NCBI RefSeq assembly: GCF_021341665.1 | Contig: NZ_JAJTTH010000004.1 | Location: 186,001 to 250,000, forward strand | Direction of reading: 5' to 3' | DNA length: 64,000 bases | Source: Pseudomonas sp. Au-Pse12 | Lineage (GTDB): Bacteria > Pseudomonadota > Gammaproteobacteria > Pseudomonadales > Pseudomonadaceae | Shown here: positions 13,673 to 32,021 of the stretch, piece by piece | Layout: each line of letters begins with the position of its first letter | Position numbering within the stretch: position 1 is the stretch's first letter | The notes under the pieces: model-generated | Database searches by the model: none | Told to the model about the DNA's origin: nothing | The model's input: only the letters and a program-made list of their open reading frames with translations | Position numbers and translations under genes: made by a program

Positions 13673-13916
13673 GATGGGACGGTTCCTTGTCGCACGCGGT
13701 GAGCAGGGCTGGATTATTGCCACAAATGCCAGGGGGCTGACATCAGAAGTTTCTTCATGACCAAACAGCTGTCTCTGTGTTTACGACGCACGTCACAGAT
13801 GAAAAGGCATGGCATGCGACAAAAATTTCACCCGATGGGTTATACAGTAACGAATTGTTTCGATTTTCTTCGGCCCGGAGTTTATCCACAGGGCCGGACC
13901 AGAGCGGCGGGGTGGT

Positions 13917-15869
13917 ATGCAAGTCGATCTTGAGGCGCAGGGTGGCGAAGTGGCCGCCTTGCCACGGTTTCAGCAGGCGGCGTCGCATGCCGCGCGTTTG
14001 CAGCGTTGGGGCGCCGTGTTGCTCGGTTTGGCGGTGCTGGGCCTGGTGGCGGCGGTGTTTGTCGACCTGTTCGCCGCGCTGACGATCTGGCCGGCGGTGC
14101 TGGTGAACCTGTCCTGTGCCTTGCTGGTGGCGGTGGCCGGGCTGCAATCGGCCTGCTGGGTCAGCCGCTGGCGGGAAGAGGTGATCAATCCGCCAGCGAT
14201 GGCCGTGCCCGAGGCCGGGGCTGGCCCCGAGCCGCCCCAGGGCCGGCTGGCGGCCACGCTGGCCCTGCGCTGGCAGCGCTTGTTGCAGCAGATCGGCGCG
14301 CCGACCCTGTGGCTCGCCGGCTGGTCGCTGCTGATCCTGTACAGCGTGGTGCAGGTGTTCAACCTGTCGTTGCCCGCCAGCGCCCTGGGCCTGAGTGCCA
14401 GCGTGGCGGCGGTGCTGGTGCTGCTGTTGGCGTTTGCCCTGCTGGTGCTGGAACGCCAACTGGCCCAGGAGCCTCCCGGGGAGTGGCCGGAAGCCGGCGC
14501 CCTGGCGCAGCTGTTGCGGGTGGCCATTGTGTGCCTGCTGGTCGCGGCGCTGTGCTTGCTGTTCAGCAGCGACGGGGCCTTGTGGCCGGTGCGGCTGGCG
14601 GTGTTGATGGGGTTGCTGCCGGCGCTGGTGGCTGGCGAGTTGCTGTTGCGGGCGCTGCTGTCGTTGTTCAGCCCGCAGCGCGAGCAGCTGGAACCACGCC
14701 TGCTGGCCCACAGTTTTGTCGCCGATATGCTGCGTTGGCCGCCCCAGCCGTTGCTCAGCTTGCAGCATGAATTGCACAACCGGTTCGGCATCGACCTGCG
14801 GCAGATCTGGGCCTTTGCCTACATGCGTCGGGCGTTCTTGCCGGTGTTGCTGGTGGTGCTGGCGGTGGGGTGGCTGTTGACCGGTGTTCATGAACTTTCG
14901 ATGCAGAGTCGCGGTATTTACGAGCGTTTTGGCAAGCCGGTGGAAGTCTTTGGCCCGGGCCTGCATGTGGGCCTGCCCTGGCCCCTGGGGCGGGTGCTGA
15001 CGGTGGAAAATGGCGTGGTCCATGAGTTGGCCACCAGCGTGGGCGAGAACCCACAGCCGCTCCAGTTGGCACCGGCTGAAGGGCCAGCGCCCGCGATTGC
15101 CAACCGTTTGTGGGACGCCAGCCACGTGAATGACAAATCCCAGGTGATCGCCAGCGGCGACGCCCAGCAGCAGAGCTTTCAGATCGTCAACATGGATGTG
15201 CGCTTCGTCTACCGCATCGGCCTGGGTGACGCTGCAGCATTGGCCGCCACGTACAACAGCAGCGACGTACCGACGCTGATCCGCAGCACCGCGAGCCGGG
15301 TGCTGGTGCACGACTTCGCTGCACGCACCCTCGACGGCCTGCTGGGGCAGGACCGAACCGGGCTGGCCGATGATATCGGCAGGGCGGTGCAGGGTGACCT
15401 GGACCGGCTCGACAGCGGGGTGGAGATTCTCGCCACCGTGGTCGAAGCCATCCATCCACCTGCCGGTGCGGCCAATGCCTACCACGGTGTGCAGGCTGCG
15501 CAGATTGGCGCCCAGGCGCTGATTTCCCGGGAACGCGGGGCGGCGGCCGAGCAGACCAACCAGGCGCAATTGCAAGCCAGCATCGCCAGCGACCAGGCCC
15601 GGGCCGATGCGCGTGAAGTGCAGGCTGCGGCCCAGGCCGCCGACCTGCGGTTTGCCGCCGAGCAGCAGGCCTACGCCAGCGCGGGGCAGGCCTTCGTTCT
15701 GGAGCACTACCTGAGCCAACTGAGCCTGGGCCTGAGCCAGGCCAAATTGCTGATTCTTGATCATCGTCTGGGCGGCGACAGCGCGCCGACCCTCGACCTG
15801 CGTACGTTCACCTTACCGGCCGACCCTTCGGCGCCGCGTAAAGCCGCTCAGCCAGGAGCCGTCCATTGA
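13917..15869 (+). CDS. SPFH/Band 7 protein with an N-terminal multi-pass region (HflK-like)
   Basis: A 650-residue membrane protein. The first about 300 residues have five or six hydrophobic helices not found in standard HflK. A further helix at about 305-320 precedes the SPFH/Band 7 domain, which starts at Q-S-R-G-I-Y-E-R-F-G-K-P-V and runs to about residue 530, with a coiled-coil, Ala/Gln-rich tail after it. SPFH proteins form large ring or cage assemblies at the inner membrane; HflK/HflC do this around FtsH. It is the first of three SPFH genes that overlap one another and then a P1B-ATPase. It ends in an overlap with the next gene. The functional link to FtsH is not shown here. Confidence 0.88.
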   Translation: MQVDLEAQGGEVAALPRFQQAASHAARLQRWGAVLLGLAVLGLVAAVFVDLFAALTIWPAVLVNLSCALLVAVAGLQSACWVSRWREEVINPPAMAVPEAGAGPEPPQGRLAATLALRWQRLLQQIGAPTLWLAGWSLLILYSVVQVFNLSLPASALGLSASVAAVLVLLLAFALLVLERQLAQEPPGEWPEAGALAQLLRVAIVCLLVAALCLLFSSDGALWPVRLAVLMGLLPALVAGELLLRALLSLFSPQREQLEPRLLAHSFVADMLRWPPQPLLSLQHELHNRFGIDLRQIWAFAYMRRAFLPVLLVVLAVGWLLTGVHELSMQSRGIYERFGKPVEVFGPGLHVGLPWPLGRVLTVENGVVHELATSVGENPQPLQLAPAEGPAPAIANRLWDASHVNDKSQVIASGDAQQQSFQIVNMDVRFVYRIGLGDAAALAATYNSSDVPTLIRSTASRVLVHDFAARTLDGLLGQDRTGLADDIGRAVQGDLDRLDSGVEILATVVEAIHPPAGAANAYHGVQAAQIGAQALISRERGAAAEQTNQAQLQASIASDQARADAREVQAAAQAADLRFAAEQQAYASAGQAFVLEHYLSQLSLGLSQAKLLILDHRLGGDSAPTLDLRTFTLPADPSAPRKAAQPGAVH

Positions 15870-16906
15870 GCCAGTCTTCCCATTCCCACGATCACGCCGG
15901 CCACGACCACGGGCATGGCCATCACCACTCTCACGGGCATCACCACCATCATCACGGCGCACCCGCCGAGGCCGGGCCTTTTCCCTGGCGGCGCATGGGC
16001 TGGGCGGTGCTGCTGGTGCTGTTCGCCGTCGCCGCGGCGAGCCTGGTGCAAGTGCGCTCCGGCGAGGCCACGGTGATCACCCGCTTCGGCAACCCGGCGC
16101 GGGTGTTGCTGGAACCGGGGCTGAACTGGCGCTGGCCGGCGCCTTTCGAGGCGGCGATCCCGGTGGACCTGCGCCTGCGCACCACGTCCAGTGGCCTGCA
16201 GGATGTGGGCACCCGCGACGGTCTGCGCATTATTGTCCAGGCGTATGTGGCCTGGCGGGTCCAGGGTGATCCGGAGCATGTGCAGCGTTTCATGCGCGCG
16301 GTGCAGAACCAGCCGGACGAAGCGGCGCGGCAGATCCGCACCTTTGTCGGCTCGGCCCTGGAAACCACTGCCAGCAGTTTCGACCTGGCCAACCTGGTGA
16401 ACACCGATGCCAGCCAGGTGCGGATCGCCGACTTCGAAGCACAATTGCGCAAGCAGATCGAACAGCAACTGCTTTCCACCTATGGGGTGAGCGTGGTGCA
16501 AGTGGGGGTCGAGCGCCTGACCCTGCCTTCGGTAACCCTGACCGCCACCGTGGATCGCATGCGCGCCGAGCGTGAAACCATCGCCACCGAACGCACCGCC
16601 ATCGGCAAGCGCGAGGCGGCGCAGATCCGTTCTGCCGCGGAGCGCGATGCGCGGATCGTGCAGGCCGATGCCACGGTGAAAGCGGCCGATATCGAGGCGC
16701 AATCCCGGGTCGAAGCGGCGCAGATTTATGGCCGCGCCTACGCCAGTTCGCCGCAGCTGTATAACCTGCTGCGCTCCCTGGACACCCTGGGCACGGTGGT
16801 GACCCCGGGCACCAAACTGATCCTGCGTACCGATGCGGCGCCGTTCCGGGTATTGGTGGATGGCCCGCAGAACCTGCCAGGCAAAGTTTCCGGATCGCAA
16901 CCATGA
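15866..16906 (+). CDS. SPFH/Band 7 protein with histidine-rich N-terminus (HflC-like)
   Basis: A 346-residue protein. It begins at a TTG (15866), placed inside the stop of the upstream gene and seven bases after AGGAG, so translation is coupled. Residues about 6-30 are extremely His-rich (for example H-G-H-H-H-S-H-G-H-H-H-H-H-H-G), a likely metal-binding tract facing the cytoplasm. A single membrane helix follows at about 40-62, then the SPFH domain opening with V-R-S-G-E-A-T-V-I-T-R-F-G. Upstream ATG codons in frame are absent. The His tract plus the downstream P1B-ATPase suggests metal binding, which is inference. Confidence 0.9.
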   Translation: MSQSSHSHDHAGHDHGHGHHHSHGHHHHHHGAPAEAGPFPWRRMGWAVLLVLFAVAAASLVQVRSGEATVITRFGNPARVLLEPGLNWRWPAPFEAAIPVDLRLRTTSSGLQDVGTRDGLRIIVQAYVAWRVQGDPEHVQRFMRAVQNQPDEAARQIRTFVGSALETTASSFDLANLVNTDASQVRIADFEAQLRKQIEQQLLSTYGVSVVQVGVERLTLPSVTLTATVDRMRAERETIATERTAIGKREAAQIRSAAERDARIVQADATVKAADIEAQSRVEAAQIYGRAYASSPQLYNLLRSLDTLGTVVTPGTKLILRTDAAPFRVLVDGPQNLPGKVSGSQP

Positions 16907-17961
16907 ATAAGGTTCCACGTGGAACAAACGAGTTGCGCAGCCCGTGGATCCAGGCCGGACGCCTGGCCTTTATCGCGTTGTACGGGGTGACGGTGCTGGC
17001 GGCGCTGGCCTGGGCGTTTTCCAATGTGCGGCAGATCGACCCGCAAAACCGGGCCATGGTCTTGCACTTTGGCCAATTGCAACGGGTGCAGGACGCCGGC
17101 TTGCTGCTGGCCTGGCCTCGGCCTTTTGAACAGGTGGTGCTGTTGCCCGCTGCCGACCGGGTGCTGGAGCGGCGAGTGGAAGGGCTGCTGCGTTCCGAAG
17201 TTGCCCTGGAAGGGGACAGGGTCGCCACCCTCGCCACGCCCTTGAATGACACCCTGGCCGGCTCCGGTTACCTGCTCACGGGGGATGCGGGTGTGGTGCA
17301 GTTGGATGTGCGGGTGTTCTACAAGGTCAGCGAGCCCTACGCCTATGTCCTCCAGAGCGAGCATGTGCTGCCGGCGCTGGACCGGTTGGTGACCCGCAGC
17401 GCCGTGGCCCTGACCGCGGCTCGCGACCTGGACACCATCCTGGTGGCGCGTCCGGAATTGATCGGCAGCGACCATCAGGCCGCCGAGCGCCGTGAACGGC
17501 TGCGCGGCGATTTGCTGCAAAGCATCAATCAGCGCCTGGCGGAACTGACCGCCAGCGGCCAGGGCCTGGGGGTCGAAGTCACGCGGGTGGATGTGCAGTC
17601 GAGCCTGCCCGGTCCGGCGGTCAGTGCTTTCAACGCGGTGCTCACCGCCAGCCAGCAAGCCGACAAGGCCGTGGCCAATGCCCGCACCGACGCGGAAAAA
17701 CTGACCCAGAGCGCCAACCAGCAGGCCGACCGCAGCCTGCAAGTGGCCCATGCCCAGGCCAGTGAACGCCTGGCGCTGGCCCAGGCCCAGACGGCCACGG
17801 TGCTGAGCCTGGCCCAGGCCCAGCGCAACGGCACCGACCCGGAGATGCTGTTGCGCATCTATCGCGAGCGTTTGCCAAAGATCCTCGGCCAGGCTGGCTC
17901 GGTGACCACGGTCAACCCTAAAGACGATTCACGCCTGATCATTCAGGGAGCCGAACAATGA
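16903..17961 (+). CDS. SPFH/Band 7 protein, third of the cluster (HflK-like)
   Basis: A 352-residue single-pass membrane protein. The transmembrane helix is at about residues 22-44, the Band 7 domain follows with N-R-A-M-V-L-H-F-G-Q-L near 55, and the C-terminal third is a coiled-coil-rich Q/A segment. Its start overlaps the end of the previous gene as ATGA. Codons 3-8 lie inside a parS sequence (16911-16926). Its own stop overlaps the ATPase start, so all four genes are one translationally coupled unit. In family terms it likely assembles with its two SPFH neighbours. Confidence 0.9.
   Translation: MNKVPRGTNELRSPWIQAGRLAFIALYGVTVLAALAWAFSNVRQIDPQNRAMVLHFGQLQRVQDAGLLLAWPRPFEQVVLLPAADRVLERRVEGLLRSEVALEGDRVATLATPLNDTLAGSGYLLTGDAGVVQLDVRVFYKVSEPYAYVLQSEHVLPALDRLVTRSAVALTAARDLDTILVARPELIGSDHQAAERRERLRGDLLQSINQRLAELTASGQGLGVEVTRVDVQSSLPGPAVSAFNAVLTASQQADKAVANARTDAEKLTQSANQQADRSLQVAHAQASERLALAQAQTATVLSLAQAQRNGTDPEMLLRIYRERLPKILGQAGSVTTVNPKDDSRLIIQGAEQ
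16911..16926 (-). promoter_or_regulatory. Candidate parS (ParB binding site)
   Basis: The minus strand reads TGTTCCACGTGGAACC, which matches the Pseudomonas chromosomal parS as I remember it in all 16 positions. It contains a perfect 14-bp palindrome, GTTCCACGTGGAAC. The site lies in the first codons of the third SPFH gene (K-V-P-R-G-T). A second one lies in folE2 at 32499. Confidence 0.88.
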
Positions 17962-19862
17962 CTGCGACTACCCACGGGGCGGCCCCCGCCAGCATGCTGA
18001 GCTCGGCCGAACAACGCAGCGCCGCGCGCCAGCTGACCCTGGCCATGCTCGCCTTGGGGCTCTTGGCCCTGGGCCTGATCTGGCGCTGGCTGGCCCCGGA
18101 ACAGGTCGGCGTCAGCCAGTTGCTGCTGGGTGTCGCTTCGCTGCTGGTGGCGGTGCCGGTGATGCGCTCGGCCTGGTTCAGCCTGCGCTACCCCAGCCTG
18201 CACGGCATTACCGACCAACTGATCGCCCTGGCCATGCTCGGTGCCTGGGCCACGGGCGACCTGCTGACCGCTGCGTTGCTGCCGATCATCATGATCTTTG
18301 GCCATGTGCTGGAAGAGCGCAGCGTGATCGGCTCCCAGGAAGCCATCGATGCCCTGGGCCGCCTGACGCGCAGCCTGGCGCGGCGGGTCGAGGCCGATGG
18401 CAGCGTGCGGGAGGTGGATAACGCCAGCCTCAAGGCTGGTGACCTGGTGGAGGTGCGCGCCGGCGACCGGGTGCCCGCCGACGGCGTGGTGATGTCCGGC
18501 CAGGCGAGCCTGGATACCGCGCCGATCACCGGTGAGTCGGTGCCATTGGAGGCCGCGCCCGGCATGCAGGTCTTCGGCGGCGCGATCAACCTCGATGGGC
18601 TGCTGCGCTTGCAGGTCACCCGTACCGGCGAAGAGTCGACCCTGGGCAAGGTGATTGCCCTGATGCAAGGCGCCGAGCGGGCCAAGCCGCCCATCACCCG
18701 TTTGCTGGAGCGTTACGCCGGCAGTTATCTGGTGCTGGTGCTGCTGTTGGCGGCGGTGACCTGGTTCATCACCAACGATGCCCAGGCCATGCTCGCGGTG
18801 CTGGTGGCGGCTTGTCCCTGTGCCCTGGTGCTGTCGGCGCCGGCCACCGCCATTGCCGGGATTGCCGTGGCGGCGCGCCACGGCATCCTGATCCGCAGCT
18901 CGGCGTTTCTCGAAGAGCTGGCGGACCTGACCTCGCTGGTGGTGGACAAGACCGGCACCCTGACCTTTGGCACCTTGCGCCTGCAAGCCATCGACAGTCC
19001 TCAGGAAGACCAGCGCGGCATGCTCAACCTGGCCGCCAGCCTTGGTTCGGCCAGCAGCCACCCGGTCAGCCGGGCCCTGGCGGGGCTGGTGCCCCAGGAA
19101 GAGCAATGGCTGCTGAGCGAGATCCATGAACGCCAGGGCCTGGGTGTGGTGGCCCGGACCGGGGAGGGCGAGGCCGCCCTGGGGCGCCCGGAGCTGTTCA
19201 GCCAGCTGGGCATCAGCACCCACCCGGTGCCGGCGCATGACGGGCCGATTGCCGGGCTGGCGCTCAATGGCGAGTTTCTCGGCTGGCTGTTGCTGGCCGA
19301 CAGCGTCAAGCCCGAGGCGCGGCAAGCGCTGGGCGAGTTGCGCGAGCTGGGCCTGGGGCGTCAGTTGCTGCTCACCGGTGACCGCCAGAGCGTGGCCGAC
19401 AGCCTGGCGCTGGAGGTCGGGATTGCCGATGTCGAGGCCCAGGCCTTGCCGGAAGACAAGCTCCAGCGGGTGCTGGGGGAGATCGACAAGGGCTTCCGGC
19501 CAATGGTGGTCGGCGATGGCATCAACGACTCCCTGGCCCTCAAGGCCGGGGTGGTGGGGGTGGCCATGGGGGCCGGGGGCGCGGACATCGCCCTGGCCTC
19601 GGCGGATGTGGTGCTGATTGGCAGCGACCTGCGGCGCCTGGGCACCTGCGTGCGCCTGAGCCGTGAATGCCGGCGGACCCTGCAGGTCAACGTGATCATC
19701 GGCCTGGGCTGGACCCTGGCCATCGTCGCCTTTGCCGCGTTTGGCTGGCTGGGGGCGGCGGGGGCAATGATCGCCGCGGTGCTGCACAACCTGAGCACCT
19801 TGCTGGTGCTGGGCAACGCTGGTCGCCTGCTGCGTTTCCAGGAGCCGCTGCTCAAGCTGTAG
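17958..19862 (+). CDS. Heavy-metal P1B-type ATPase without N-terminal metal-binding domain
   Basis: A 634-residue cation pump of the inner membrane. It has the phosphorylation motif D-K-T-G-T-L-T (Asp330), T-G-E-S in the actuator domain, S-H-P of the nucleotide-binding domain, G-D-G-I-N-D near the hinge, and C-P-C in membrane helix 6 (Cys286 and Cys288), which places it in P1B. The last helix carries H-N-L-S-T (His610) and not the M-x2-S-S of copper pumps or the D-x-G of zinc/cadmium pumps, so the ion cannot be assigned. There is no CxxC domain at the N-terminus. It overlaps the third SPFH gene by ATGA and precedes a bufferin operon. Confidence 0.93.
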   Translation: MTATTHGAAPASMLSSAEQRSAARQLTLAMLALGLLALGLIWRWLAPEQVGVSQLLLGVASLLVAVPVMRSAWFSLRYPSLHGITDQLIALAMLGAWATGDLLTAALLPIIMIFGHVLEERSVIGSQEAIDALGRLTRSLARRVEADGSVREVDNASLKAGDLVEVRAGDRVPADGVVMSGQASLDTAPITGESVPLEAAPGMQVFGGAINLDGLLRLQVTRTGEESTLGKVIALMQGAERAKPPITRLLERYAGSYLVLVLLLAAVTWFITNDAQAMLAVLVAACPCALVLSAPATAIAGIAVAARHGILIRSSAFLEELADLTSLVVDKTGTLTFGTLRLQAIDSPQEDQRGMLNLAASLGSASSHPVSRALAGLVPQEEQWLLSEIHERQGLGVVARTGEGEAALGRPELFSQLGISTHPVPAHDGPIAGLALNGEFLGWLLLADSVKPEARQALGELRELGLGRQLLLTGDRQSVADSLALEVGIADVEAQALPEDKLQRVLGEIDKGFRPMVVGDGINDSLALKAGVVGVAMGAGGADIALASADVVLIGSDLRRLGTCVRLSRECRRTLQVNVIIGLGWTLAIVAFAAFGWLGAAGAMIAAVLHNLSTLLVLGNAGRLLRFQEPLLKL

Positions 19863-19882
19863 CAGCCGGCTTGCCGGCGAAA
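19863..19882. repeat. REP-like fragment after the P1B-ATPase gene
   Basis: The sequence right after the stop codon, GCAGCCGGCTTGCCGGCGAA, matches the core of the second Pseudomonas REP family seen at 61620. It lies between the ATPase and the bufferin operon and may separate their transcripts. Confidence 0.6.
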
Positions 19883-19912
19883 CGCCGCTGTGCAGTTTTT
19901 TTTCATCCCGGC

Positions 19913-19941
19913 TGTAACGCCGGGTGGCCTCCCCTCTCTAG
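19913..19941 (+). promoter_or_regulatory. Candidate ECF-type promoter for the bufferin operon
   Basis: TGTAAC (19913-19918) is followed after 17 bases by CTCTAG (19936-19941), about 60 bp before the DUF2282 start. Bufferin operons in other bacteria are often under ECF sigma factors that use a GTAAC-like -35 element. No sigma factor gene is present in the window, so this is tentative. Confidence 0.35.
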
Positions 19942-20001
19942 TGCCATGACGGGCTTGCACAAGCGGCCCGTCACCCCCCTGCGACTATTGAGGAATAAAA
20001 C

Positions 20002-20253
20002 ATGAACATGAAGAAAACCGCTGCCGGCGCTGCCCTGGCCTTCGCTGCCGCCACCCTGTTTGCCGGTGTTGCCACTCAAGCGTCGGCCGCCGATGCCCAG
20101 GTTCATTGTTACGGCGTCAATGGCTGCAAAGGTCAGAACGACTGCAAGACCAAGGACCACGCCTGCAAAGGCATGGGCGCTTGCAAGGGCCAGGGCTTCA
20201 AGGTCATGACCCAGTCGGCGTGCGAAAAAGCCGGCGGCAAAGTCGGCGAGTAA
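20002..20253 (+). CDS. bufA1: DUF2282 bufferin-type RiPP precursor peptide
   Basis: An 83-residue small protein with a signal peptide ending near A-T-Q-A-S-A (residue about 29), then a Cys-rich core with six cysteines: H-C-Y-G, G-C-K-G, D-C-K-T, A-C-K-G, A-C-K-G and A-C-E-K. This C-K-G pattern is the DUF2282 signature. Members are exported, copper-linked RiPP precursors now called bufferins, whose cysteines are modified by an MNIO enzyme. GAGGA lies seven bases before the ATG. It is followed by the MNIO (DUF692) gene and a DUF2063 gene, the minimal modification set. A DoxX gene, often present in such operons, is absent. Confidence 0.9.
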   Translation: MNMKKTAAGAALAFAAATLFAGVATQASAADAQVHCYGVNGCKGQNDCKTKDHACKGMGACKGQGFKVMTQSACEKAGGKVGE

Positions 20254-20318
20254 GCGGCGAATCCGTGCTGCCGCAGTGGGGCTGACGACCACTGCGGCCA
20301 CCTTGCGAGGAGTTCGCG

Positions 20319-21164
20319 ATGCCTGACCTTTCTTCCTGCCTGGGCTATGGCCTGGGTTTGCGCAGTGCCTACTATCAGCAGATTCTCGATCAAGCGCCGG
20401 ACGTCGACTGGTTCGAGGTGGTGTCCGAGAACTTCATGGTCGAGGGCGGCAAGGCCCTCTATTACCTGGACGCCATCGCCGAGCGTTACCCCATCGTGAT
20501 GCACGGGGTGTCACTGTCCATTGGCGGTCCCCATGCCCTGGACCTGGATTACCTCAAGCAACTCAAGCAGCTGGCCCGACGGGTGAGCCCGGCATGGATC
20601 TCCGATCACCTGTGCTGGAGCCGGGGCAACGCTCATCAACTGCACGATCTGCTGCCGTTGCCCTACACCGAGGAAAGCCTGCATTACGTCGCGGGCCGGG
20701 TGCGCCAGGTGCAGGAAATACTGGAGCGGCCGCTGGTGCTGGAGAATGTCTCCAGTTATGTGCGGACGGCGGCGGATGACTTCAGCGAGTGGGCATTTCT
20801 GGCGGCACTGAGCCAGCTCAGTGGCTGCGAGCTGCTGCTGGATGTGAACAACGTTTACGTCAGTTCACGCAATCACGGTTTCGACCCCTGGCACTTCATC
20901 CAGGCGCTGCCGGCCCGCCGCGTGCGGCAACTGCACCTGGCCGGGCACCAGGACTACGGTGACTACGTGATCGACACCCATGATCACCCGGTGTGCGATC
21001 CGGTCTGGGCGCTGTATCAACGCACGCTTGAACACCTGGGGCCGGTGGCGACCCTGCTTGAGCGTGACGATCATTTTCCGCCGCTGGACGAACTGCTGGG
21101 CGAATTGCACAAGGCCCGCGAGCTGGGACAACGAGCCCTGGCCGGGAGGCAGCAATGCGCCTGA
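20319..21164 (+). CDS. bufB: DUF692 multinuclear non-haem iron oxidative enzyme (MNIO, BufB-like)
   Basis: A 281-residue TIM-barrel enzyme of the MNIO family. It begins G-Y-G-L-G-L-R and contains the expected metal ligands in order: M-H-G-V-S-L, S-D-H-L-C, L-E-N-V-S-S-Y, L-D-V-N-N, L-H-L-A-G-H and the T-H-D-H-P segment. MNIO enzymes modify cysteines of partner peptides, for example to thiooxazoles or oxazolone/thioamides. Strong GAGGAG ribosome site. Next to DUF2282 and DUF2063, it should modify the peptide encoded 65 bp upstream. Confidence 0.93.
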   Translation: MPDLSSCLGYGLGLRSAYYQQILDQAPDVDWFEVVSENFMVEGGKALYYLDAIAERYPIVMHGVSLSIGGPHALDLDYLKQLKQLARRVSPAWISDHLCWSRGNAHQLHDLLPLPYTEESLHYVAGRVRQVQEILERPLVLENVSSYVRTAADDFSEWAFLAALSQLSGCELLLDVNNVYVSSRNHGFDPWHFIQALPARRVRQLHLAGHQDYGDYVIDTHDHPVCDPVWALYQRTLEHLGPVATLLERDDHFPPLDELLGELHKARELGQRALAGRQQCA

Positions 21165-21943
21165 ACGACTGGCAACGGGCGTTTGAAGCCTATCTGCTGG
21201 GCGAACAGCCCCAGGCTTGCGCCACCTTGGAAGACAGCCTGATCGGTGGCCCGACCCTGGATGTCGAGACCGGTCTGGCGATCTATCACCACGCTTATCA
21301 GGCTCGACTGCTGGAGGTCATGGGCGGTGATTTCCCGGTGATCGGGCACTGGCTGGGTGATGCGGAATTCGCTGCGCTGGCCGCTGCCTATATCCGCCAG
21401 TGCCCGTCGCGGCACTTCAGCCTGCGCTGGCTCGGGCAGGGGTTCGCCGGGTTTATCCAGGGCCATCTGGTGCCGGAGCAGGGCGTGCCCCTGGCGGAAC
21501 TGGCGCGCCTGGAATGGGCCTTCACCCTGGCCTTCGATGCGCCCGAGGCCGAGGTGCTGACCGTGGCGGCCATGGCCGGGCTGGACGCCGAGCAATGGCC
21601 GGTGCTGCAACTGTGCCTGGCGCCTTGCGTGCAGTGGCTCGATTGTCGCTACAACAGCGTGGCGCTGTGGCGCGCGGTGAAGGAGCAGGCGGATTTTCCC
21701 CAGAGTGCTTTACTCGATCAGGAGCAGGTGTGCCTGGTCTGGCGAGCGGACCGGGTCTGCCGCTACCGCAGCCTGTCGGCCGAGGAGGCCTGGGCCTTGA
21801 AAGGCATGACGCAGGAGCAGTGGAACTTTGCGGAACTCTGTGCCGAACTGGCCGTCACTTATGCCGAGGGGGCCCCGCTGCAGGCGGTTACCTGGCTGAA
21901 ACAGTGGGTCGAAGACGGCCTGGTGCTGCTCGGCACATCATAG
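21155..21943 (+). CDS. bufC: DUF2063 protein, MNIO partner (BufC-like)
   Basis: A 262-residue protein. The N-terminal part (W-Q-R-A-F-E-A-Y-L; Y-H-H-A-Y-Q-A-R-L) is the DUF2063 domain, often annotated as putative DNA-binding, but in RiPP systems it acts as the recognition partner of the DUF692 enzyme. Its start overlaps the stop of bufB by 10 bp, so the two are made together. The C-terminal part probably provides the peptide-binding domain. No downstream DoxX gene follows; the next gene is an independent cfa-like methyltransferase. Confidence 0.9.
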   Translation: MRLNDWQRAFEAYLLGEQPQACATLEDSLIGGPTLDVETGLAIYHHAYQARLLEVMGGDFPVIGHWLGDAEFAALAAAYIRQCPSRHFSLRWLGQGFAGFIQGHLVPEQGVPLAELARLEWAFTLAFDAPEAEVLTVAAMAGLDAEQWPVLQLCLAPCVQWLDCRYNSVALWRAVKEQADFPQSALLDQEQVCLVWRADRVCRYRSLSAEEAWALKGMTQEQWNFAELCAELAVTYAEGAPLQAVTWLKQWVEDGLVLLGTS

Positions 21944-25350: not shown

Positions 25351-27240
25351 CTACTTCATGCGGGCCAGGGCCTGTTCCAGGCTCAGGCGGCCCAGGTCTT
25401 CGCCATTCCTGCTGCGCAGGCTGATGTAGCCTCCGGCCTTTTCCTGGTCGCCGATCACCAGCAGATAGGGCACTTTCTGCAGGCTGTGCTCGCGGATCTT
25501 GTAGCCGATCTTTTCGTTGCGCAGGTCGGCGCTGGCCCGCAGCCCGTGTTGGCGCAAGCGCTCGCTGATGTCCCGGGCGTAGTCGGCCTGGGCTTCGCTG
25601 ATGTTCAGCACCACCGCCTGTTGTGGCGCCAGCCACAGGGGCAGGGCGCCACCGTGGTGTTCCAGGAGAATGCCGATAAAGCGTTCCAGCGAACCGAACA
25701 GCGCCCGGTGCAGCATCACTGGCGGGCGGCGCTCGCCACTGTCGCTGATGTAGCTGATGGCGAAGCGCTCGGGCAGGTTGAGGTCCACTTGCAGGGTGCC
25801 GCACTGCCAGTCGCGGCCGATGGCGTCGCGTAGCACGAACTCCAGCTTGGGGCCGTAGAAGGCGCCTTCCCCGGGGTTGGTCCGGTAGTCCACCTGCATG
25901 CTTTGCAAGGCGCCGACCAGGGCGTTTTCCAGCTGGTCCCAGACCTCGTCGCTGCCGATGCGGTTGGCCGGGCGGGTGGAGAGCTTCACCGACACGTCGT
26001 CGAAACCGAACTCCTTATAGATGTCGAACACCAGGGCGATGGTGCTGGCGCATTCGCTTTGCATCTGCTCGGGGGTGCAGAAGATGTGGGCGTCGTCCTG
26101 GGTGAAGTGGCGCACCCGCAGCAGGCCGTGCAAAGCGCCTGACGGCTCGTAGCGGTGGACCTTGCCGAACTCGGCGATGCGCAGCGGCAGGTCGCGGTAG
26201 CTCTTTATCCCGTGGCTGAAGATCGCCACCGCGCCGGGGCAGTTCATCGGCTTGAGGGCGAAGGTGCGCTGGTCCTCGGTGCTGGTGGTGAACATGTGGT
26301 CGCGGTAGTTCTGCCAGTGCCCGGAGGTTTCCCACAGGCTGCGGTCCATCACGTCCGGGGTGTTCACTTCCTGGTAGCCGGCCTGCTCCTGACGCTGGCG
26401 CATGTAGCCGATCAATTGCTGGAACAGGGTCCAGCCCCTGGCGTGCCAGAACACCGAACCCGGTGCGCAGTCGTCGAAGTGGAACAGGTCCAGTTGCTGG
26501 CCGAGCTTGCGGTGATCGCGCTTGGCGGCTTGTTCCTGGCGGATCAGGTAGGCGTCCAGCTCCTGGCGGCTGGCCCAGCAGGTGCCGTAGATCCGTTGCA
26601 GCGGTGCCTTGCTGGCGTCGCCGCGCCAGTAGGCGCCCGCCACCCGGGTCAGCTTGAAGGCGCGCAACTGGCCGGTGGAGCGCAGGTGCGGCCCGCGGCA
26701 CAGGTCCTCGAAATCCCCCTGGCGGTACAGCGACAGCACGGCCTGCGGTGGCAGGTCGCGGATCAACTCGACCTTGAAGTGCTCGCCCTGGGCGACGAAG
26801 TGTTGCTCGGCCTGCTCCCGGGACAATTCGCGGCGGCGCACCGAGTGGTTGGTGGCGGCGAGGCTGTGCATGCGTGCCTCGATCAGTTCCAGGTCTTCGG
26901 GCGTGAAGGGGCGCTCGCAGGCGAAGTCGTAGAAGAAGCCGTCCTCGATTACCGGGCCGATGGCCACCTGGGCCGAGGGATACAACTGCTTGACCGCCAT
27001 TGCCAGCAGGTGCGCGCAGGAGTGGCGCAGCACCTCCAGGCCCTCGGGCTCGCGGGCGGTGATGATGCTCAGCCGGGCATCGCTTTGCAGCAGGTAGTCA
27101 CAGTCCACCAGCCGGCCATCCACGCGCCCGGCCACGGCGGCCTTGGCCAGGCCGCTGCCGATGCTGGCGGCCACCTCGAAAACGGACAACGGCTGGTCGT
27201 ACTCACGGCACGCGCCATCAGGCAGGGTGATGCGGATCAT
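25351..27240 (-). CDS. thrS2: Second threonyl-tRNA synthetase (ThrRS2), zinc-regulon copy
   Basis: A 629-residue class II synthetase that would charge tRNA-Thr. It has the TGS domain (residues 1-60), the H-S-x2-H editing-domain zinc-like motif (H-S-C-A-H-L near 75), motif 1 to 3 core elements, and the catalytic zinc ligands Cys (M-N-C-P-G), His (D-D-A-H-I-F) and His (M-L-H-R-A). The zinc site is therefore kept. It is the last gene of the minus-strand zinc operon, 26 bp after pyrQ, and is not in the usual thrS-infC-rpmI context, which identifies it as the paralogue. Expression under zinc shortage is inferred from the operon's Zur box. Confidence 0.93.
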   Translation of the reverse strand: MIRITLPDGACREYDQPLSVFEVAASIGSGLAKAAVAGRVDGRLVDCDYLLQSDARLSIITAREPEGLEVLRHSCAHLLAMAVKQLYPSAQVAIGPVIEDGFFYDFACERPFTPEDLELIEARMHSLAATNHSVRRRELSREQAEQHFVAQGEHFKVELIRDLPPQAVLSLYRQGDFEDLCRGPHLRSTGQLRAFKLTRVAGAYWRGDASKAPLQRIYGTCWASRQELDAYLIRQEQAAKRDHRKLGQQLDLFHFDDCAPGSVFWHARGWTLFQQLIGYMRQRQEQAGYQEVNTPDVMDRSLWETSGHWQNYRDHMFTTSTEDQRTFALKPMNCPGAVAIFSHGIKSYRDLPLRIAEFGKVHRYEPSGALHGLLRVRHFTQDDAHIFCTPEQMQSECASTIALVFDIYKEFGFDDVSVKLSTRPANRIGSDEVWDQLENALVGALQSMQVDYRTNPGEGAFYGPKLEFVLRDAIGRDWQCGTLQVDLNLPERFAISYISDSGERRPPVMLHRALFGSLERFIGILLEHHGGALPLWLAPQQAVVLNISEAQADYARDISERLRQHGLRASADLRNEKIGYKIREHSLQKVPYLLVIGDQEKAGGYISLRSRNGEDLGRLSLEQALARMK

Positions 27241-27266
27241 CTTCAGTGGTCCTTGGTGTCAGGCGG

Positions 27267-28601
27267 TTAACGGGTGAAGCGCAGGGGCAGGCCCTGACAG
27301 TGGTCGTACAGGCGGCCCTGATGCCAGGCGAGCTGGCCGGAGACCAGGGTGGTGCTGACGCTGTGGCGAAAGCGCCGGCCGGTGAACGGTGTCCAGCCGC
27401 ATTGGGCAAGGATCGGCTGGCTGTCCACGGCCAGGCCCCCGGGTTCGGCGCGGATCAGCACCAGGTCGGCCCAGTAGCCCTCGCGCAGGTAGCCGCGGTC
27501 GGGGATGGCGAACAGATCGGCGACCCGGTGGCTGGTCTTGGCCACCAGGGTGGTCAGGGGCAGCAGCCGGTCGGCCACCAGTTCCAGCAGCGCCGGCAAG
27601 GCGTGTTGCACCAGCGGCAGGCCGGAAGGCGCGCGGCTGTAAGGCAGTTGTTTCTGCTCCCAGGTGTGGGGGGCGTGGTCGGTGCCGATGACATCCAGGC
27701 GCTGGCTGTTGAGGGCCTGGCGCAGGGCATCGCGATCGGCCTGGGTCTTGATCGCCGGGTTGCATTTGATCAGGTGGCCCAGGCGCGGGTAGTCGCGGTC
27801 ATCGAACAGCAGGTGGTGCACGCAGACTTCGGCGGTGATGTGCTTGTCCGCCAGGGGCCGGTCCTCGAACAGCGCCAGCTCCCGAGCGCTGGTCAGGTGC
27901 AGGACGTGCAGGCGGGTGCCGTGTTTTCTGGCCAGTGCCACCGCCAGGGACGAGGAGCGGTAGCAGGCCTCGGCATCGCGGATGTGCGGGTGGGCGGCGG
28001 CGGGGATCTGCTCGCCGTACAGCTGCAGCCAGCGCTGTTGCCGGCCCTGGATGCTCGGGGTGTGTTCGCAGTGGGCCAGGAGCAGGGTCGGCACCTGACG
28101 AAACAGCCGGTCCAGCACCTCGGGGTCGTCCACCAGCATGTTGCCGGTGGAGGCGCCCATGAACACCTTGACCCCGGCGACCTGGGTCGGGTCCAGGGCG
28201 GCGACGGTGTCGAGGTTGTCGTTGCTGACGCCGAAGTGGAAGCCGTAGTTGGCCACCGACGTGGTCGCCGCGCGGCGCTTCTTGTCCGCCAGGGCAGCCA
28301 GGGTCAGGGTTGCCGGCGAGGTGTTGGGCATGTCCATGAAGCTGGTGATGCCACCGGCCACCGCCGCCCGCGACTCACTATGCAGGCTGCCTTTTTCCGG
28401 CGCGCCGGGGTCACGAAAGTGCACCTGATCGTCGATCATCCCCGGCAGCAGCCATTGGCCCTGGGCGTCGATTTCGACCTCGGCGCTGAGGTGGTCGAGG
28501 CTGCCGATGGTGTCGATGCGCCCGTGGCTGACCAGCAGGTCGGCGTCGAACTCGCGCCCTTCATTCACCAGGCGGGCGTTGCGGATGAGGATTCGGCTCA
28601 T
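27267..28601 (-). CDS. pyrQ: Dihydroorotase paralogue (PyrQ/PyrC2)
   Basis: A 444-residue amidohydrolase-family dihydroorotase. The first metal-ligand motif reads I-D-D-Q-V-H-F-R-D-P-G at about residue 60, so the first His of the usual H-x-H is Gln; the later ligands (a His in L-L-A-H-C-E, H-L-T-S, and G-T-D-H-A-P-H) are present. It would convert carbamoyl-aspartate to dihydroorotate in pyrimidine synthesis. In P. aeruginosa a zinc-regulon paralogue at this place is known as PyrQ. Start at 28601 (M-S-R-I-L-I-R-N) lies 2 bp after the gamma-carbonic anhydrase stop. A longer in-frame reading upstream overlaps that gene and is rejected. Confidence 0.92.
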   Translation of the reverse strand: MSRILIRNARLVNEGREFDADLLVSHGRIDTIGSLDHLSAEVEIDAQGQWLLPGMIDDQVHFRDPGAPEKGSLHSESRAAVAGGITSFMDMPNTSPATLTLAALADKKRRAATTSVANYGFHFGVSNDNLDTVAALDPTQVAGVKVFMGASTGNMLVDDPEVLDRLFRQVPTLLLAHCEHTPSIQGRQQRWLQLYGEQIPAAAHPHIRDAEACYRSSSLAVALARKHGTRLHVLHLTSARELALFEDRPLADKHITAEVCVHHLLFDDRDYPRLGHLIKCNPAIKTQADRDALRQALNSQRLDVIGTDHAPHTWEQKQLPYSRAPSGLPLVQHALPALLELVADRLLPLTTLVAKTSHRVADLFAIPDRGYLREGYWADLVLIRAEPGGLAVDSQPILAQCGWTPFTGRRFRHSVSTTLVSGQLAWHQGRLYDHCQGLPLRFTR

Positions 28602-28603
28602 GC

Positions 28604-29164
28604 TCAAAACTCGTTCTGCAGGGCCTTGTAGCCACGCACCAGATCGACGTTGGTGCGCGCCACGTCTTCGGAAAACTCCGAAGCGCTGACACTCACGGGA
28701 GGGAACTGGGCGAGGTCGGTCTTGGGCCCGATGCGGGTGGTGGAGGGCACGTAGAAACCCGCCGGCAGGTCGCGGCCGTCCACCACCGAGTTGTGCCGGA
28801 CCACGCTGCCGTCGCCGACCTCGCAGTTGAACAGCACGCTGTTGAAGCCGATGAACACCCGGTCGCCGACCACGCACGGGCCATGGACGATGGAGCGGTG
28901 GGCAATGGAGGTGTGCTGGCCGATGGTCACCGCCGCGCCGGATTTGGAGTGGATCACCACGCCGTCCTGGATGTTCGAGTTGGCGCCGATGGTGATGGCT
29001 TGCATCTGGCCGCTGGCGTCCACTTCATCGGCGCGGATCACCGCGTAGGGGCCGACGAACACGTTGTCGCCGATCACCACCTTGCCGCAGATGATGGCGG
29101 TCTTGTCCACGTAGGCCGATTCGGCGATCACTGGCAGGTCGCCGGAGGGGTTTTTACGAATCAT
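28604..29164 (-). CDS. Gamma-carbonic-anhydrase-like protein
   Basis: A 186-residue left-handed beta-helix (hexapeptide repeat) protein of the gamma-carbonic anhydrase family. The three metal-binding histidines are visible in V-I-H-S-K-S-G near residue 71 and A-H-R-S-I-V-H-G-P near 88-93. It would hydrate carbon dioxide, though many members have unknown activity. It overlaps hisI2 by 11 bp and belongs to the zinc operon. In zinc shortage this family can use iron or cobalt, so it may stand in for zinc-dependent anhydrases. Confidence 0.92.
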   Translation of the reverse strand: MIRKNPSGDLPVIAESAYVDKTAIICGKVVIGDNVFVGPYAVIRADEVDASGQMQAITIGANSNIQDGVVIHSKSGAAVTIGQHTSIAHRSIVHGPCVVGDRVFIGFNSVLFNCEVGDGSVVRHNSVVDGRDLPAGFYVPSTTRIGPKTDLAQFPPVSVSASEFSEDVARTNVDLVRGYKALQNEF

Positions 29165-29597
29165 GGCGCGAGTCCTTCAAGGGGGAACTGATGACTTCCA
29201 CCGCGCCATCGCGAATGGCGTTGTAGAAACAGTTGGGGCGACCGGTGTGGCAGGCAGGTCCTTGCTGATCCACGAGCAGCAGCACGGCATCGCCGTCGCA
29301 GTCCAGGCGTGCTTCGATCAGGCGTTGCCGGTGCCCGGAGCTTTCACCCTTGCGCCACAGGCACTGGCGCGAACGCGACCAGTAGCAGGCCTGGCCGCTG
29401 GCCAGGGTCTCGGCCAGGGCCCGGCGGTTCATCCAGGCCAGCATCAGCACTTCGCCACTGTCGTGCTGCTGGGCGATGGCGGCGATCAGGCCGTCGCTGT
29501 TCCAGGGCAGGGCGTCGAGCACGGCGGCCAGCGGCCAGCGGCTGCCCTGGGGCGCGCCTTCCAGCGTCAGCAACGACAGCGGCGGGGGCTGGTTCAT
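29154..29597 (-). CDS. hisI2: Phosphoribosyl-AMP cyclohydrolase paralogue (HisI2)
   Basis: A 147-residue HisI-type enzyme, which opens the ring of phosphoribosyl-AMP in histidine synthesis and needs zinc and magnesium. Recognised by M-L-A-W-M-N, the Y-W-S-R-S-R segment, D-C-D-G-D-A (metal site) and A-C-H-T-G-R-P-N-C-F (zinc Cys). The stand-alone form without HisE and the place in a zinc operon mark it as a paralogue of the housekeeping hisI. ATGA overlap with the ABC binding-protein gene upstream and overlap with the anhydrase gene downstream. Confidence 0.92.
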   Translation of the reverse strand: MNQPPPLSLLTLEGAPQGSRWPLAAVLDALPWNSDGLIAAIAQQHDSGEVLMLAWMNRRALAETLASGQACYWSRSRQCLWRKGESSGHRQRLIEARLDCDGDAVLLLVDQQGPACHTGRPNCFYNAIRDGAVEVISSPLKDSRHDS

Positions 29598-30478
29598 GGT
29601 CGGCTCAGGGCGTCGTACAGGGTGTTGAGGTTGGCTTCGAACAGGCCGGTGAACGTGCTGGCCGGGCCGCTGGCCGAGAGTGCGTCGGAGTACAGGGTGC
29701 CGCCGATATGGGCGCCGCTTTCGTCGGCGATCTGCTTGAGCAGGCGGGCGTCCTTGATGTTTTCCATGAACACCGCCTTGACCTTGGCGGTGCGGATCTG
29801 GGTGATCAGCGCGGCGACTTCGGCGGCCGAAGGTTCACGCTCGGTGGACAGGCCCTGGGGCGCCATGAAGTCGATGCCGTAGGCCTGGCCCAGGTAACCG
29901 AAGGCGTCGTGGGAGGTGACGATCTTGCGGTTGCCCGGGGGCAGTGAGCCGAGCTTGGCCTTGGCCTCGGCCAGCAGGCGATAGACCTGTTGCAGGTAGG
30001 CCTGGCTGTTGCGCCGGTAGTCGGCCTGGTGGGCCGGGTCGGCGGCGATCAGCGCCTGGGTGATGTTGTTCACATAGAGTTCGCTGTTGGCCAGGTTGTG
30101 CCAGGCGTGCGGGTCGGGAACGCTTGCACCGTCTTCCTCAAGGGTGCGCGGAATGACGCCGCGGCTGGCGATGACCTGTTGCGCCGGGGTGGCGGTGCTG
30201 GCGATCAGGCGGTCCAGCCAGGGTTCGAAGCCCAGGCCGTTCTTGATGATCAGCCGGGCCTTGAGCAAGGCCTTGGCGTCATCCGGGGTGGGTTCGTAGG
30301 TGTGGGCGTCCTCATCGGCGCCCACCAGGTTGGTGATCTGCACATGTTCGCCGCCGATCTGGCGGGTCATGTCGGCGAGGATGCTGAAACTGCTGACCAC
30401 AGCCAGCTTGTCCGCCGCGTGGGCGGTGGACAGCGACAACGGCAACAGCAGGCTGAACAGCACGAGTAGAGCGCGCAT
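29594..30478 (-). CDS. Zinc-type ABC transporter periplasmic binding protein (ZnuA/AztC-like)
   Basis: A 294-residue cluster A-I metal-binding protein. The signal peptide is M-R-A-L-L-V-L-F-S to A-H-A-A. Candidate zinc ligands are His in D-A-H-T-Y-E-P-T, His in D-P-H-A-W-H-N, His in S-H-D-A-F-G-Y and Asp in Y-S-D-A-L-S. The long His-rich loop of ZnuA is missing, and the H-H-H-D set is what AztC-type proteins have. ATG at 30478 is preferred over one at 30493, since GAGGTG lies eight bases upstream. It works with the permease and ATPase encoded just upstream. No aztD or zur gene accompanies it. Confidence 0.9.
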   Translation of the reverse strand: MRALLVLFSLLLPLSLSTAHAADKLAVVSSFSILADMTRQIGGEHVQITNLVGADEDAHTYEPTPDDAKALLKARLIIKNGLGFEPWLDRLIASTATPAQQVIASRGVIPRTLEEDGASVPDPHAWHNLANSELYVNNITQALIAADPAHQADYRRNSQAYLQQVYRLLAEAKAKLGSLPPGNRKIVTSHDAFGYLGQAYGIDFMAPQGLSTEREPSAAEVAALITQIRTAKVKAVFMENIKDARLLKQIADESGAHIGGTLYSDALSASGPASTFTGLFEANLNTLYDALSRP

Positions 30479-30489
30479 CGGTAGACACC

Positions 30490-31356: not shown

Positions 31357-32021
31357 CAAGCCACCCGCGCGCACGGTGGTTGGGCGATCAGCTCTTGGCT
31401 GGGGCCGAATACGCAGCCGCTGCTTTTTACCAGCAGGGTCCGGGGGATGTGTTGGCGCACGGCGGCCAGGTCATGGCAGACCACCACCAGGGTTCGGCCC
31501 TGGGCGTGCCAGTTGTACAGGTGGCGCCAGAGCAGGGCCTGGCCTGTTTCGTCGAGGGCGGCGTGGGGCTCGTCCAACAGCAGTATCGGTGCTTCGGTCA
31601 GGCTCAAGCGGGCGAGCAGGGCGCGTTGCAATTCGCCGCCGGAAAGGGCCATCAACGGGCGTTTTTCCAGGCCGCTCAGGCACCAGTCTTCGAGTACCGT
31701 GCGCAGCTTTTCTCCCCGGGCCCTGGCCGGTTCACGTTTGCCCCAGAATCCACCGGCCACCAGTTCTTCCAGGCTGATGGGGAACTGCCGGTCCAGGTGT
31801 TGCTGCTGTGGCAGGAACGACAGACCGCCGCGCGGCGTACCCAGGTGGACCTTGCCCGAGAGTGGCTTCTGCAACCCGGCGAGGACTTTCAGCAAGCTGC
31901 TCTTGCCCGACCCGTTGGCGCCGATGATCGCGCTCAGGCTGGCCTTGGGCAGGTGCAGATCCAGCGCCGGGGTCAGCGGTTGCCCCGGGGCGCCCCAGCG
32001 CAGGTTTTCGCAGCGGATCAT
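31356..32021 (-). CDS. Metal ABC transporter ATPase (ZnuC/AztA-like)
   Basis: A 221-residue ABC ATPase. Walker A is G-A-N-G-S-G-K-S-S at about residues 35-43, the signature is L-S-G-G-E-L-Q near 127, and Walker B is I-L-L-L-D-E-P near 147. It powers the importer with the permease and binding protein encoded downstream. Its start overlaps the folE2 stop as TGATG and its stop overlaps the permease start. It lacks the C-terminal His-rich extension seen in some ZnuC proteins. Confidence 0.93.
   Translation of the reverse strand: MIRCENLRWGAPGQPLTPALDLHLPKASLSAIIGANGSGKSSLLKVLAGLQKPLSGKVHLGTPRGGLSFLPQQQHLDRQFPISLEELVAGGFWGKREPARARGEKLRTVLEDWCLSGLEKRPLMALSGGELQRALLARLSLTEAPILLLDEPHAALDETGQALLWRHLYNWHAQGRTLVVVCHDLAAVRQHIPRTLLVKSSGCVFGPSQELIAQPPCARVA

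What the first reader, a model, noticed from the sequence alone, without database searches (positions are those of the whole stretch)
13917..21943. Three SPFH genes with a P1B-ATPase beside a bufferin operon: possible metal-handling system
Three overlapping SPFH genes, one with a His-rich tail, are translationally coupled to a P1B-ATPase and followed after 139 bp by a bufferin-type copper-linked RiPP operon. The couplings are visible in the sequence. The bufferin and MNIO families are known for copper stress. That the two operons act together is my inference. An SPFH ring that holds or clusters a metal pump, with an exported metal-binding peptide, would be a new arrangement.
Basis: partly seen in the sequence, partly recalled or inferred. 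Interest (0 to 1): 0.8.

Follow-up and report, generated by a model that had tools for sequence, protein, structure and literature searches.

The report
Zinc-starvation SPFH and metal-pump operon
Three membrane-ring genes and a metal pump form one conserved, horizontally moving gene block that looks like the Pseudomonas aeruginosa hmtA zinc-starvation locus; the copper-peptide operon next door is probably just a neighbour, and whether rings and pump work together is an open, testable question.

Summary
Three SPFH genes and a P1B-ATPase overlap by 4 bp at each join, and a BufA2-type bufferin operon follows after 139 bp. The His-rich "tail" is an N-terminal head on the second SPFH protein.

The bufferin link is not supported. 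The operon follows the ATPase in 37 of 88 loci. In 149 genus genomes the two do not associate (odds ratio 0.90), and the promoters differ.

The four-gene block is strongly supported. Its order holds in 89 of 89 readable loci and on five plasmids of alpha-, beta- and gammaproteobacteria. SPFH1 and the ATPase occur in the same 11 of 398 genomes.

It points to zinc starvation. A Zur-like box precedes it (84 of 88 loci), and a FolE2/Azt-like/ZigA/amidase cluster lies downstream in 5 of 5 genus genomes checked. Gene order matches P. aeruginosa PA2439-PA2437 plus hmtA, a locus reported as zinc-responsive.

The pump has CPC and HN motifs, like the "P1B6-like" pump CtpC, which needs the scaffold PacL1. 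Best reading: an HflK/C-like scaffold dedicated to a zinc pump. Contact between the proteins, transport direction and metal are untested here.

The parts
13839..13851 (.). Zur-like box GTTATACAGTAAC, 66-78 nt upstream of the SPFH1 start
   Evidence: 10 of 12 positions of GTTATANTATAAC; 10 or more in 84 of 88 loci against 0 of 440 shuffles; position
13917..15869 (+). SPFH1, HflK-like, 650 aa: seven predicted TM segments, then an SPFH domain
   Evidence: TM segments by hydropathy; low-confidence model; orthologues
15866..16906 (+). SPFH2, HflC-like, 346 aa, TTG start, His-rich N-terminus, one TM
15866..15958 (+). His-rich N-terminal segment of SPFH2 (about residues 1-31), predicted cytosolic
   Evidence: His-rich in 89 of 89 loci; Arg-Arg just before the TM
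16903..17961 (+). SPFH3, HflK-like by NCBIfam, 352 aa, one TM
17958..19862 (+). P1B-ATPase, 634 aa, no HMA domain detected by Pfam
18813..18821 (+). CPC motif of the ATPase (residues 286-288)
   Evidence: AACPCAL in 89 of 89 loci; invariant in 16 aligned rows
19785..19790 (+). HN motif in the last TM helix (residues 610-611)
   Evidence: 88 of 88 loci that reach the C-terminus: 86 by pattern, L046 and L048 by eye; invariant in 16 aligned rows
19875..19890 (+). terminator-like hairpin with T-run between ATPase and bufA (weak: the scan as a whole is not above chance)
19913..19943 (+). NEIGHBOUR: ECF-type promoter-like element of bufA, TGTAACG-N16-CTCTAGTG
   Evidence: 35 of 37 bufA upstream regions; 0 of 88 SPFH1 upstream regions; one place in the window
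20002..21943 (+). NEIGHBOUR, not part of the system: bufferin operon BufA2 (20002-20253), BufB (20319-21164), DUF2063 protein (21155-21943)
   Evidence: present in 37 of 88 loci
25351..38202 (.). Linked zinc-starvation cluster: ThrS (25351-27240), HisI, AztB-like, AztA-like, FolE2 (32021-32914), AmiC-type amidase (33043-34266), ZigA (frame 34966-36414), a protein I recall as DUF1826 (36414-37121), CobW-like (37234-38202)
   Evidence: ThrS, HisI, FolE2 and ZigA pass their cut-offs; AztB 241.5/280, AztA 168.3/220, AmiC 318/700 and CobW 92.5/332 do not; conserved downstream in 5 of 5 genus genomes examined
32947..32959 (.). Consensus box GTTATATTATAAC between the divergent folE2 and amidase genes
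34730..34742 (.). Second consensus box GTTATAATATAAC

Best explanation
The block is a zinc-limitation operon of the same kind as P. aeruginosa PA2439-PA2438-PA2437-hmtA. Shown here: four overlapping genes whose order does not break up in the loci seen, a conserved Zur-like box in front, and linkage to a zinc-starvation cluster. Inferred: when zinc is scarce, Zur releases the promoter. SPFH1, SPFH2 and SPFH3 assemble an HflK/C-like ring or cage in the inner membrane with its bulk in the periplasm, and SPFH1 adds a seven-helix membrane base. That assembly holds or stabilises the P1B pump. The many copies of the His-rich N-terminus of SPFH2 form a metal-binding collar on the cytosolic side. By analogy with reports on HmtA the pump most likely moves zinc (possibly copper) inward, and the collar accepts and buffers it. 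The bufferin operon is a separately controlled neighbour.
For: Gene order kept in 89 of 89 loci. Full-length SPFH1 and this ATPase subfamily (E up to 1e-90) occur in the same 11 of 398 phylum genomes. Same four genes on Rhizobium (two), Klebsiella aerogenes, Paraburkholderia and Burkholderia plasmids. Zur-like box at 10 or more of 12 in 84 of 88 loci, 0 of 440 shuffles. Zinc cluster downstream in 5 of 5 genus genomes, two of which (G130, G344) have no bufferin beside the block; on the Paraburkholderia plasmid ZigA, a Fur-family regulator and a zinc ABC transporter lie just upstream. P. aeruginosa: PA2434, PA2435 and PA2437-PA2439 up 5.6-14.4-fold in a znuA mutant; Zur shifts the PA2439 promoter; the proteins rise on zinc depletion, significantly for some. 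His-rich head in 89 of 89. ATPase CPC plus HN, the pair described for CtpC, which needs the scaffold PacL1.
Against: No P. aeruginosa sequence was available, so orthology rests on gene order. The 89 loci were picked by SPFH1, so they cannot show SPFH1-free copies. The box is off-consensus and was seen by eye before it was tested. None was found upstream of the annotated start on four plasmids (L155-L158). A Pseudomonas review says Zur was not found at hmtA, against the shift reported; hmtA mRNA stayed low and unchanged after zinc addition. The same review says import needs confirmation. PaFlo deletions gave no pronounced phenotype, in assays that list no metal limitation. In mycobacteria CtpC platforms form without flotillin. 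The zinc cluster was not downstream in the 2 non-genus Pseudomonadaceae fetched. The SPFH1 model is poor (mean pLDDT 57.4). Nothing here shows contact between SPFH proteins and pump.
Confidence: 0.6

Rival explanations
1. The SPFH triplet is a zinc-starvation set of FtsH modulators that replaces or reshapes HflK/C on the zinc protease FtsH. The ATPase is merely co-regulated.
For: HflC and HflK are the nearest solved structures of SPFH2 and SPFH1; P. aeruginosa papers annotate PA2437-PA2439 as HflC/HflK-family proteins or FtsH modulators.
Against: All three fall below the NCBIfam hflK/hflC equivalog cut-offs (56.6 of 159.4, 100.4 of 134.4, 91.0 of 159.4). The genome has two other HflK/C-like pairs. 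SPFH1 and the ATPase go together in 11 of 11 genomes, which plain FtsH modulators would not need. No FtsH-contact test was possible.
Confidence: 0.2
2. It is a metal efflux platform of the PacL-CtpC type, protecting against zinc or cadmium excess; the SPFH proteins are the scaffold.
For: CPC plus HN motifs and a membrane scaffold with a metal-binding segment are the features described for CtpC-PacL1; P1B pumps usually export.
Against: The Zur-like box and the FolE2/ZigA neighbourhood predict expression in shortage, not excess. The genome has a separate CadA-like pump beside what looks like a MerR-type regulator (labels by eye). HmtA overexpression was reported to raise cell zinc and copper.
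Confidence: 0.15
3. One reading: one copper/metal system made of an SPFH-held pump plus exported bufferin.
For: Adjacency is kept in 37 of 88 loci and in 29 of the 31 genus-sample genomes that have both.
Against: 51 of 88 loci lack it, with 11 changes at the fewest on a quick ATPase tree, 5 of them forced by well-supported branches; odds ratio 0.90; different upstream elements; not seen outside the genus in 5 genomes and 5 plasmids.
Confidence: 0.04

Closest known systems
P. aeruginosa hmtA locus PA2439-PA2434 (SPFH genes PA14_33070, PA14_33080, PA14_33110 = PaFlo5, PaFlo6, PaFlo7)
   Same: Three HflK/HflC-family SPFH genes with a P1B-ATPase in one cluster; Zur site predicted and a Zur shift reported at the first gene; zinc-starvation response.
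   Different: PA2436 lies between the SPFH genes and hmtA; in the window the genes overlap. Locus L044 has such an extra ORF. P. aeruginosa sequence was not compared. The passages I read do not propose that the SPFH proteins act on HmtA.
PacL1-CtpC metal efflux platform of Mycobacterium tuberculosis
   Same: A P1B pump with CPC and HN motifs and a dedicated membrane scaffold bearing a metal-binding segment.
   Different: Scaffold is SPFH, not DUF1490 (PacL); the predicted signal is zinc shortage, not excess; CtpC has an N-terminal metal-binding domain, this pump has none that Pfam detects.
HflK-HflC modulators of FtsH
   Same: SPFH proteins; nearest solved structures of SPFH1 and SPFH2.
   Different: Below hflK/hflC equivalog cut-offs; SPFH1 has seven predicted TM segments; tied to a metal pump.
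Flotillin FloA with the heme importer subunit IsdF in Staphylococcus aureus
   Same: An SPFH protein needed for a nutrient-metal uptake system (passages).
   Different: General flotillin with an ABC-type permease in a Gram-positive; no dedicated SPFH-pump operon is described in the passages.

Membership tests
hmtA locus (PA2439-PA2434 type) | three HflK/C-family SPFH genes upstream of one P1B-ATPase | tested here: met
   compared with the gene table
hmtA locus (PA2439-PA2434 type) | Zur site at the promoter of the first SPFH gene | tested here: met
   Zur-like box in 84 of 88 loci; by sequence only, no binding test
hmtA locus (PA2439-PA2434 type) | ORF between SPFH3 and ATPase (PA2436) | tested here: not met
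   4 bp overlap in the window; a 150-aa ORF is there in L044
hmtA locus (PA2439-PA2434 type) | sequence identity of the ATPase to PA2435 | not tested
   no named P. aeruginosa sequence was reachable; the one genome-contig scan kept 80 of 368 candidates, none P. aeruginosa
hmtA locus (PA2439-PA2434 type) | induction by zinc depletion; zinc/copper import | not testable with these tools
   needs experiment
P1B6-like ATPase (CtpC type) | CPC in TM4 | tested here: met
   89 of 89
P1B6-like ATPase (CtpC type) | HN in TM6 | tested here: met
   88 of 88 that reach the C-terminus; 16 of 16 aligned rows
P1B6-like ATPase (CtpC type) | groups with CtpC or P1B6 pumps on a tree | tested here: inconclusive
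   own clade 100/100; joins a Roseburia CPC+HN pump weakly (74/85), long branches; CtpC itself not in the set
PacL-CtpC platform | DUF1490/DUF6110 partner | tested here: not met
   only Band_7 found in the three partner proteins
HflK / HflC (FtsH modulator) | NCBIfam equivalog cut-off | tested here: not met
   56.6/159.4, 100.4/134.4, 91.0/159.4 bits
Bufferin operon (neighbour) | BufA2 precursor and MNIO BufB | tested here: met
   93.9/60 and 375.5/310 bits
   no Pfam hit for the 83-aa protein

The most novel reading that the evidence does not exclude
A stand-alone, horizontally transferred SPFH-pump module: an HflK/C-type cage with a polytopic subunit and a ring of His-rich cytosolic tails encloses a P1B6-like ATPase and turns it into a zinc-scavenging platform. 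It would be a P-type ATPase with its own SPFH enclosure and the shortage-side counterpart of the PacL-CtpC efflux platform. A second HflK/C-like pair beside NRAMP and TerC genes in the same genome hints at a wider class of SPFH rings dedicated to metal transporters.
Probability: 0.4. Interest if true: 0.8.

Novelty: new member of a known kind. Interest (0 to 1): 0.55.

Why it matters
The parts are in print separately: HmtA as an odd P1B importer, PA2437-PA2439 as zinc-responsive HflK/C-family genes, PaFlo5-7 as SPFH proteins of unknown role. Their linkage across alpha-, beta- and gammaproteobacteria makes one idea directly testable: that these SPFH proteins exist to serve a metal pump. It would give three orphan SPFH proteins a function, could explain why HmtA is reported to behave unlike other P1B pumps, and would extend metal-transport platforms from mycobacterial PacL proteins to SPFH rings.

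Tried and rejected
Copper-detox reading with bufferin: rejected on distribution, upstream elements and tree.
DUF2282 precursor: not met; it is BufA2.
Structure of SPFH1: mean pLDDT 57.4, pTM 0.39, too weak for a fold search, so none was run; only helix positions were used, beside hydropathy.
Promoter scan: no sigma-70-like site found (0.4 expected); terminator-like sites at the number expected by chance (6 against 5.3, sd 2.4).
Zur-like box upstream of the annotated start on plasmids L155-L158: best scores 7-8 of 12. The inverted-repeat scan had no shuffle control, and 7-of-8 arms turned up in several of the nine regions, so it is only suggestive. Two Rhizobium-group loci (L046, L162) share a perfect palindrome of another sequence.
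ATPase tree: useful for the module clade only; its place among P1B pumps is unsure because of long branches.
Lewinson et al. 2009 (HmtA import) is not held and is known to me only through the papers.
Dropped rows and caps: the genome-contig scan kept the best 80 of 368 relatives. L052 (3.3 kb contig, SPFH1 only) is out of all synteny counts. L103 (contig ends inside the ATPase) is out of the tree. One locus without 150 nt upstream is out of the box count (88 of 89 used). Of the 10 plasmid hits at 58% identity or more 5 were opened.
The consensus used for the box was fixed partly from recall; in the shuffle controls of other genes a score of 10 came up once among 445 (SPFH2) and once among 185 (bufB).
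Full report
What is there. Pfam finds a Band_7 (SPFH) domain in the first three and a P-type ATPase in the fourth. SPFH1 is HflK-like and SPFH2 HflC-like by NCBIfam and by solved structures; SPFH3 is HflK-like by NCBIfam. All three miss the hflK/hflC equivalog cut-offs. SPFH1 carries seven predicted membrane segments before its SPFH domain; the AlphaFold model is too poor to say more. SPFH2 begins with a His-rich stretch, then Arg-Arg and one membrane helix, so the His-rich part should be cytosolic (inference from the positive-inside rule). The genome has six other SPFH matches, among them two further HflK/C-like pairs, and four other P1B pumps over the family cut-off.

The block is one unit. 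Of these 90, 89 are long enough to read, and all 89 have SPFH1-SPFH2-SPFH3-ATPase in order. Three have one gene interrupted or cut by a contig end. These loci were chosen by SPFH1, so an independent test matters: in 398 genomes drawn across the phylum, full-length SPFH1 (46% identity or more) and this ATPase subfamily (E up to 1e-90) were found in the same 11 genomes and in none of the other 387. On plasmids the ten nearest relatives of the ATPase are 58-77% identical; the next is at 36%. Five of the ten were opened (Rhizobium tumorigenes, R. lusitanum, Klebsiella aerogenes, Paraburkholderia sprentiae, Burkholderia ubonensis), and all five have the same four genes. The four annotated ones have different flanks, with transposase genes near the block in the Klebsiella and B. 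ubonensis records. The His-rich head of SPFH2 is in 89 of 89 loci although its sequence drifts. Three outgroup ATPases (L044, L045, L046) carry His-rich N-termini of their own; the window's does not.

The bufferin operon is separate. It follows the ATPase in 37 of 88 loci. Of the other 51, 46 show the next gene of the neighbourhood (a CFA-type methyltransferase) behind the ATPase, and the 5 outside the genus have other genes. On a quick ATPase tree the label needs 11 changes at the fewest, 5 forced by well-supported branches; it is clustered (0 of 500 shuffles as low), so adjacency is inherited within clades. In 149 genus genomes 88 have the ATPase and 54 have BufA2 over cut-off; 31 have both (29 adjacent), 57 only the ATPase, 23 only BufA2, 38 neither (odds ratio 0.90, p 0.86; relatedness not corrected). 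The bufA upstream region carries TGTAACG-N16-CTCTAGTG in 35 of 37 loci, an ECF-sigma-like pattern (label recalled), and 0 of 88 SPFH1 upstream regions do.

Zinc shortage. A palindrome, GTTATACAGTAAC, lies at 13839-13851. Scored against GTTATANTATAAC, 84 of 88 upstream regions reach 10 or more of 12. None of 440 shuffles of them does, nor do the real regions upstream of SPFH2, SPFH3, ATPase, bufA or bufB in the same loci; shuffles of those reached 10 twice in all. The consensus was partly recalled and the window site was noticed before the count. This genome supports it: perfect copies stand at 32947 and 34730, the first between folE2 and an amidase gene. In the whole genome the relaxed pattern has 7 places, the reversed control 1. 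The window holds a zinc-starvation cluster at 25.3-38.2 kb: ThrS, HisI, FolE2 and ZigA pass NCBIfam cut-offs; AztB-, AztA-, AmiC- and CobW-like proteins fall below theirs. That such genes mark zinc starvation is in part from the P. aeruginosa papers (folE2, amiA) and in part recalled. Homologues of AztA, AztB, FolE2, the amidase, ZigA and neighbours lie downstream of the block in 5 of 5 genus genomes fetched (L171-L175), two of which have no bufferin beside the block (L039/L171, L040/L172); the two non-genus Pseudomonadaceae fetched (L176, L177) show none. Fifteen of the 80 named loci, which end about 10 kb beyond SPFH1, show part of the cluster. On the Paraburkholderia plasmid ZigA, a Fur-family regulator and a zinc ABC transporter sit just upstream of the block.

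Known relatives. Passages and Table 2 of PMC4542158 list PA2439 (HflK family), PA2438 and PA2437 (HflC family), PA2435 (HmtA) and PA2434 as up 5.6-14.4-fold in a znuA mutant, with a weak Zur site. PMC8531726 (passages) reports Zur shifting the PA2439 promoter with zinc, but hmtA mRNA low and unchanged after zinc addition. PMC11761036 (passages) finds these proteins raised on zinc depletion, significantly for PA2438 and, by its text, PA2439. PMC9431628 (passages) finds PA2437-PA2439 slightly up with N-acetylcysteine among Zur-regulon genes. PMC10393844 (passages) says the importer claim for HmtA needs confirmation and that Zur was found at all uptake promoters except hmtA, which conflicts. PMC13086221 (abstract, outline, passages) treats PA14_33070, PA14_33080 and PA14_33110 as PaFlo5-7 in one operon, probably moved by horizontal transfer, found in 2 of 10 other Pseudomonas reference genomes, with no pronounced phenotype; the word HmtA does not occur in it. 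My sample finds the ATPase in 88 of 149 genus genomes. I infer that these are the counterparts of the window's genes; I could not compare sequences. L044, from the same family, has SPFH x3, a 150-aa ORF, then the ATPase, the order of PA2439-PA2435.

How it may work. The ATPase has CPC in 89 of 89 loci and HN in the last helix in all 88 that reach it. PMC9374683 (abstract, passages, Discussion) uses the same pair to call CtpC P1B6-like; CtpC needs PacL1, a membrane scaffold with a metal-binding motif, and its foci form without flotillin. I therefore read the SPFH triplet as the scaffold of this pump, with SPFH2's His-rich heads as its cytosolic metal site. Regulation argues for uptake in shortage; P1B chemistry in general argues for export. 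That conflict is open. Searches 5 (no paper), 10, 24, 25, 44, 56, 63 and 98 of an open-licence library listed no title or abstract start that proposes an SPFH-P1B complex, and the passages I read do not; subscription papers were not searched.

Verdict. Real, conserved and probably a zinc-shortage SPFH-pump unit; a member of the hmtA kind of locus rather than a new copper system. The mechanistic idea is good and untested.

Noticed in passing
L152:6366-10864 (own genome contig C49, about 21.4-25.9 kb): A second HflK/C-like SPFH pair is followed by NRAMP and TerC genes. The same order is in one other genome (L211, G403; 39-70% identity); the close HflK form is in 2 of 57 genomes, own included.
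   Followed up: partly
window 25351-38202: A zinc-starvation cluster (FolE2, AztA/AztB-like, ZigA, amidase, HisI, ThrS) with two consensus Zur-like boxes, linked to the SPFH-pump block in the 5 genus genomes examined.
   Followed up: yes
window 19913-19943: ECF-sigma-like promoter element of the bufferin operon, in 35 of 37 loci; the cognate sigma factor was not sought.
   Followed up: partly
window 15866 and loci L039-L128: SPFH2 is predicted to start with TTG, overlapping the end of SPFH1 in the window, in 87 of 89 loci: a conserved weak start, possibly setting subunit stoichiometry.
   Followed up: no
L107 upstream of SPFH1: Lowest score of the 88 for the Zur-like box (6 of 12), on a longer ATPase branch.
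   Followed up: no
L163, L164, L165, L169: Four other places in the genome match the relaxed box; their genes were only glanced at.
   Followed up: no
L044:10642-11094: A 150-aa ORF without Pfam hit, by eye with a signal peptide, sits between SPFH3 and the ATPase, like PA2436.
   Followed up: no
L156: The block is carried on a plasmid typed as conjugative in Klebsiella aerogenes from mulberry, with a Tn3 transposase downstream.
   Followed up: no
L048 (SPFH2), L058 (SPFH3): One SPFH gene is interrupted in each of these two loci; sequencing error or real loss was not examined.
   Followed up: no
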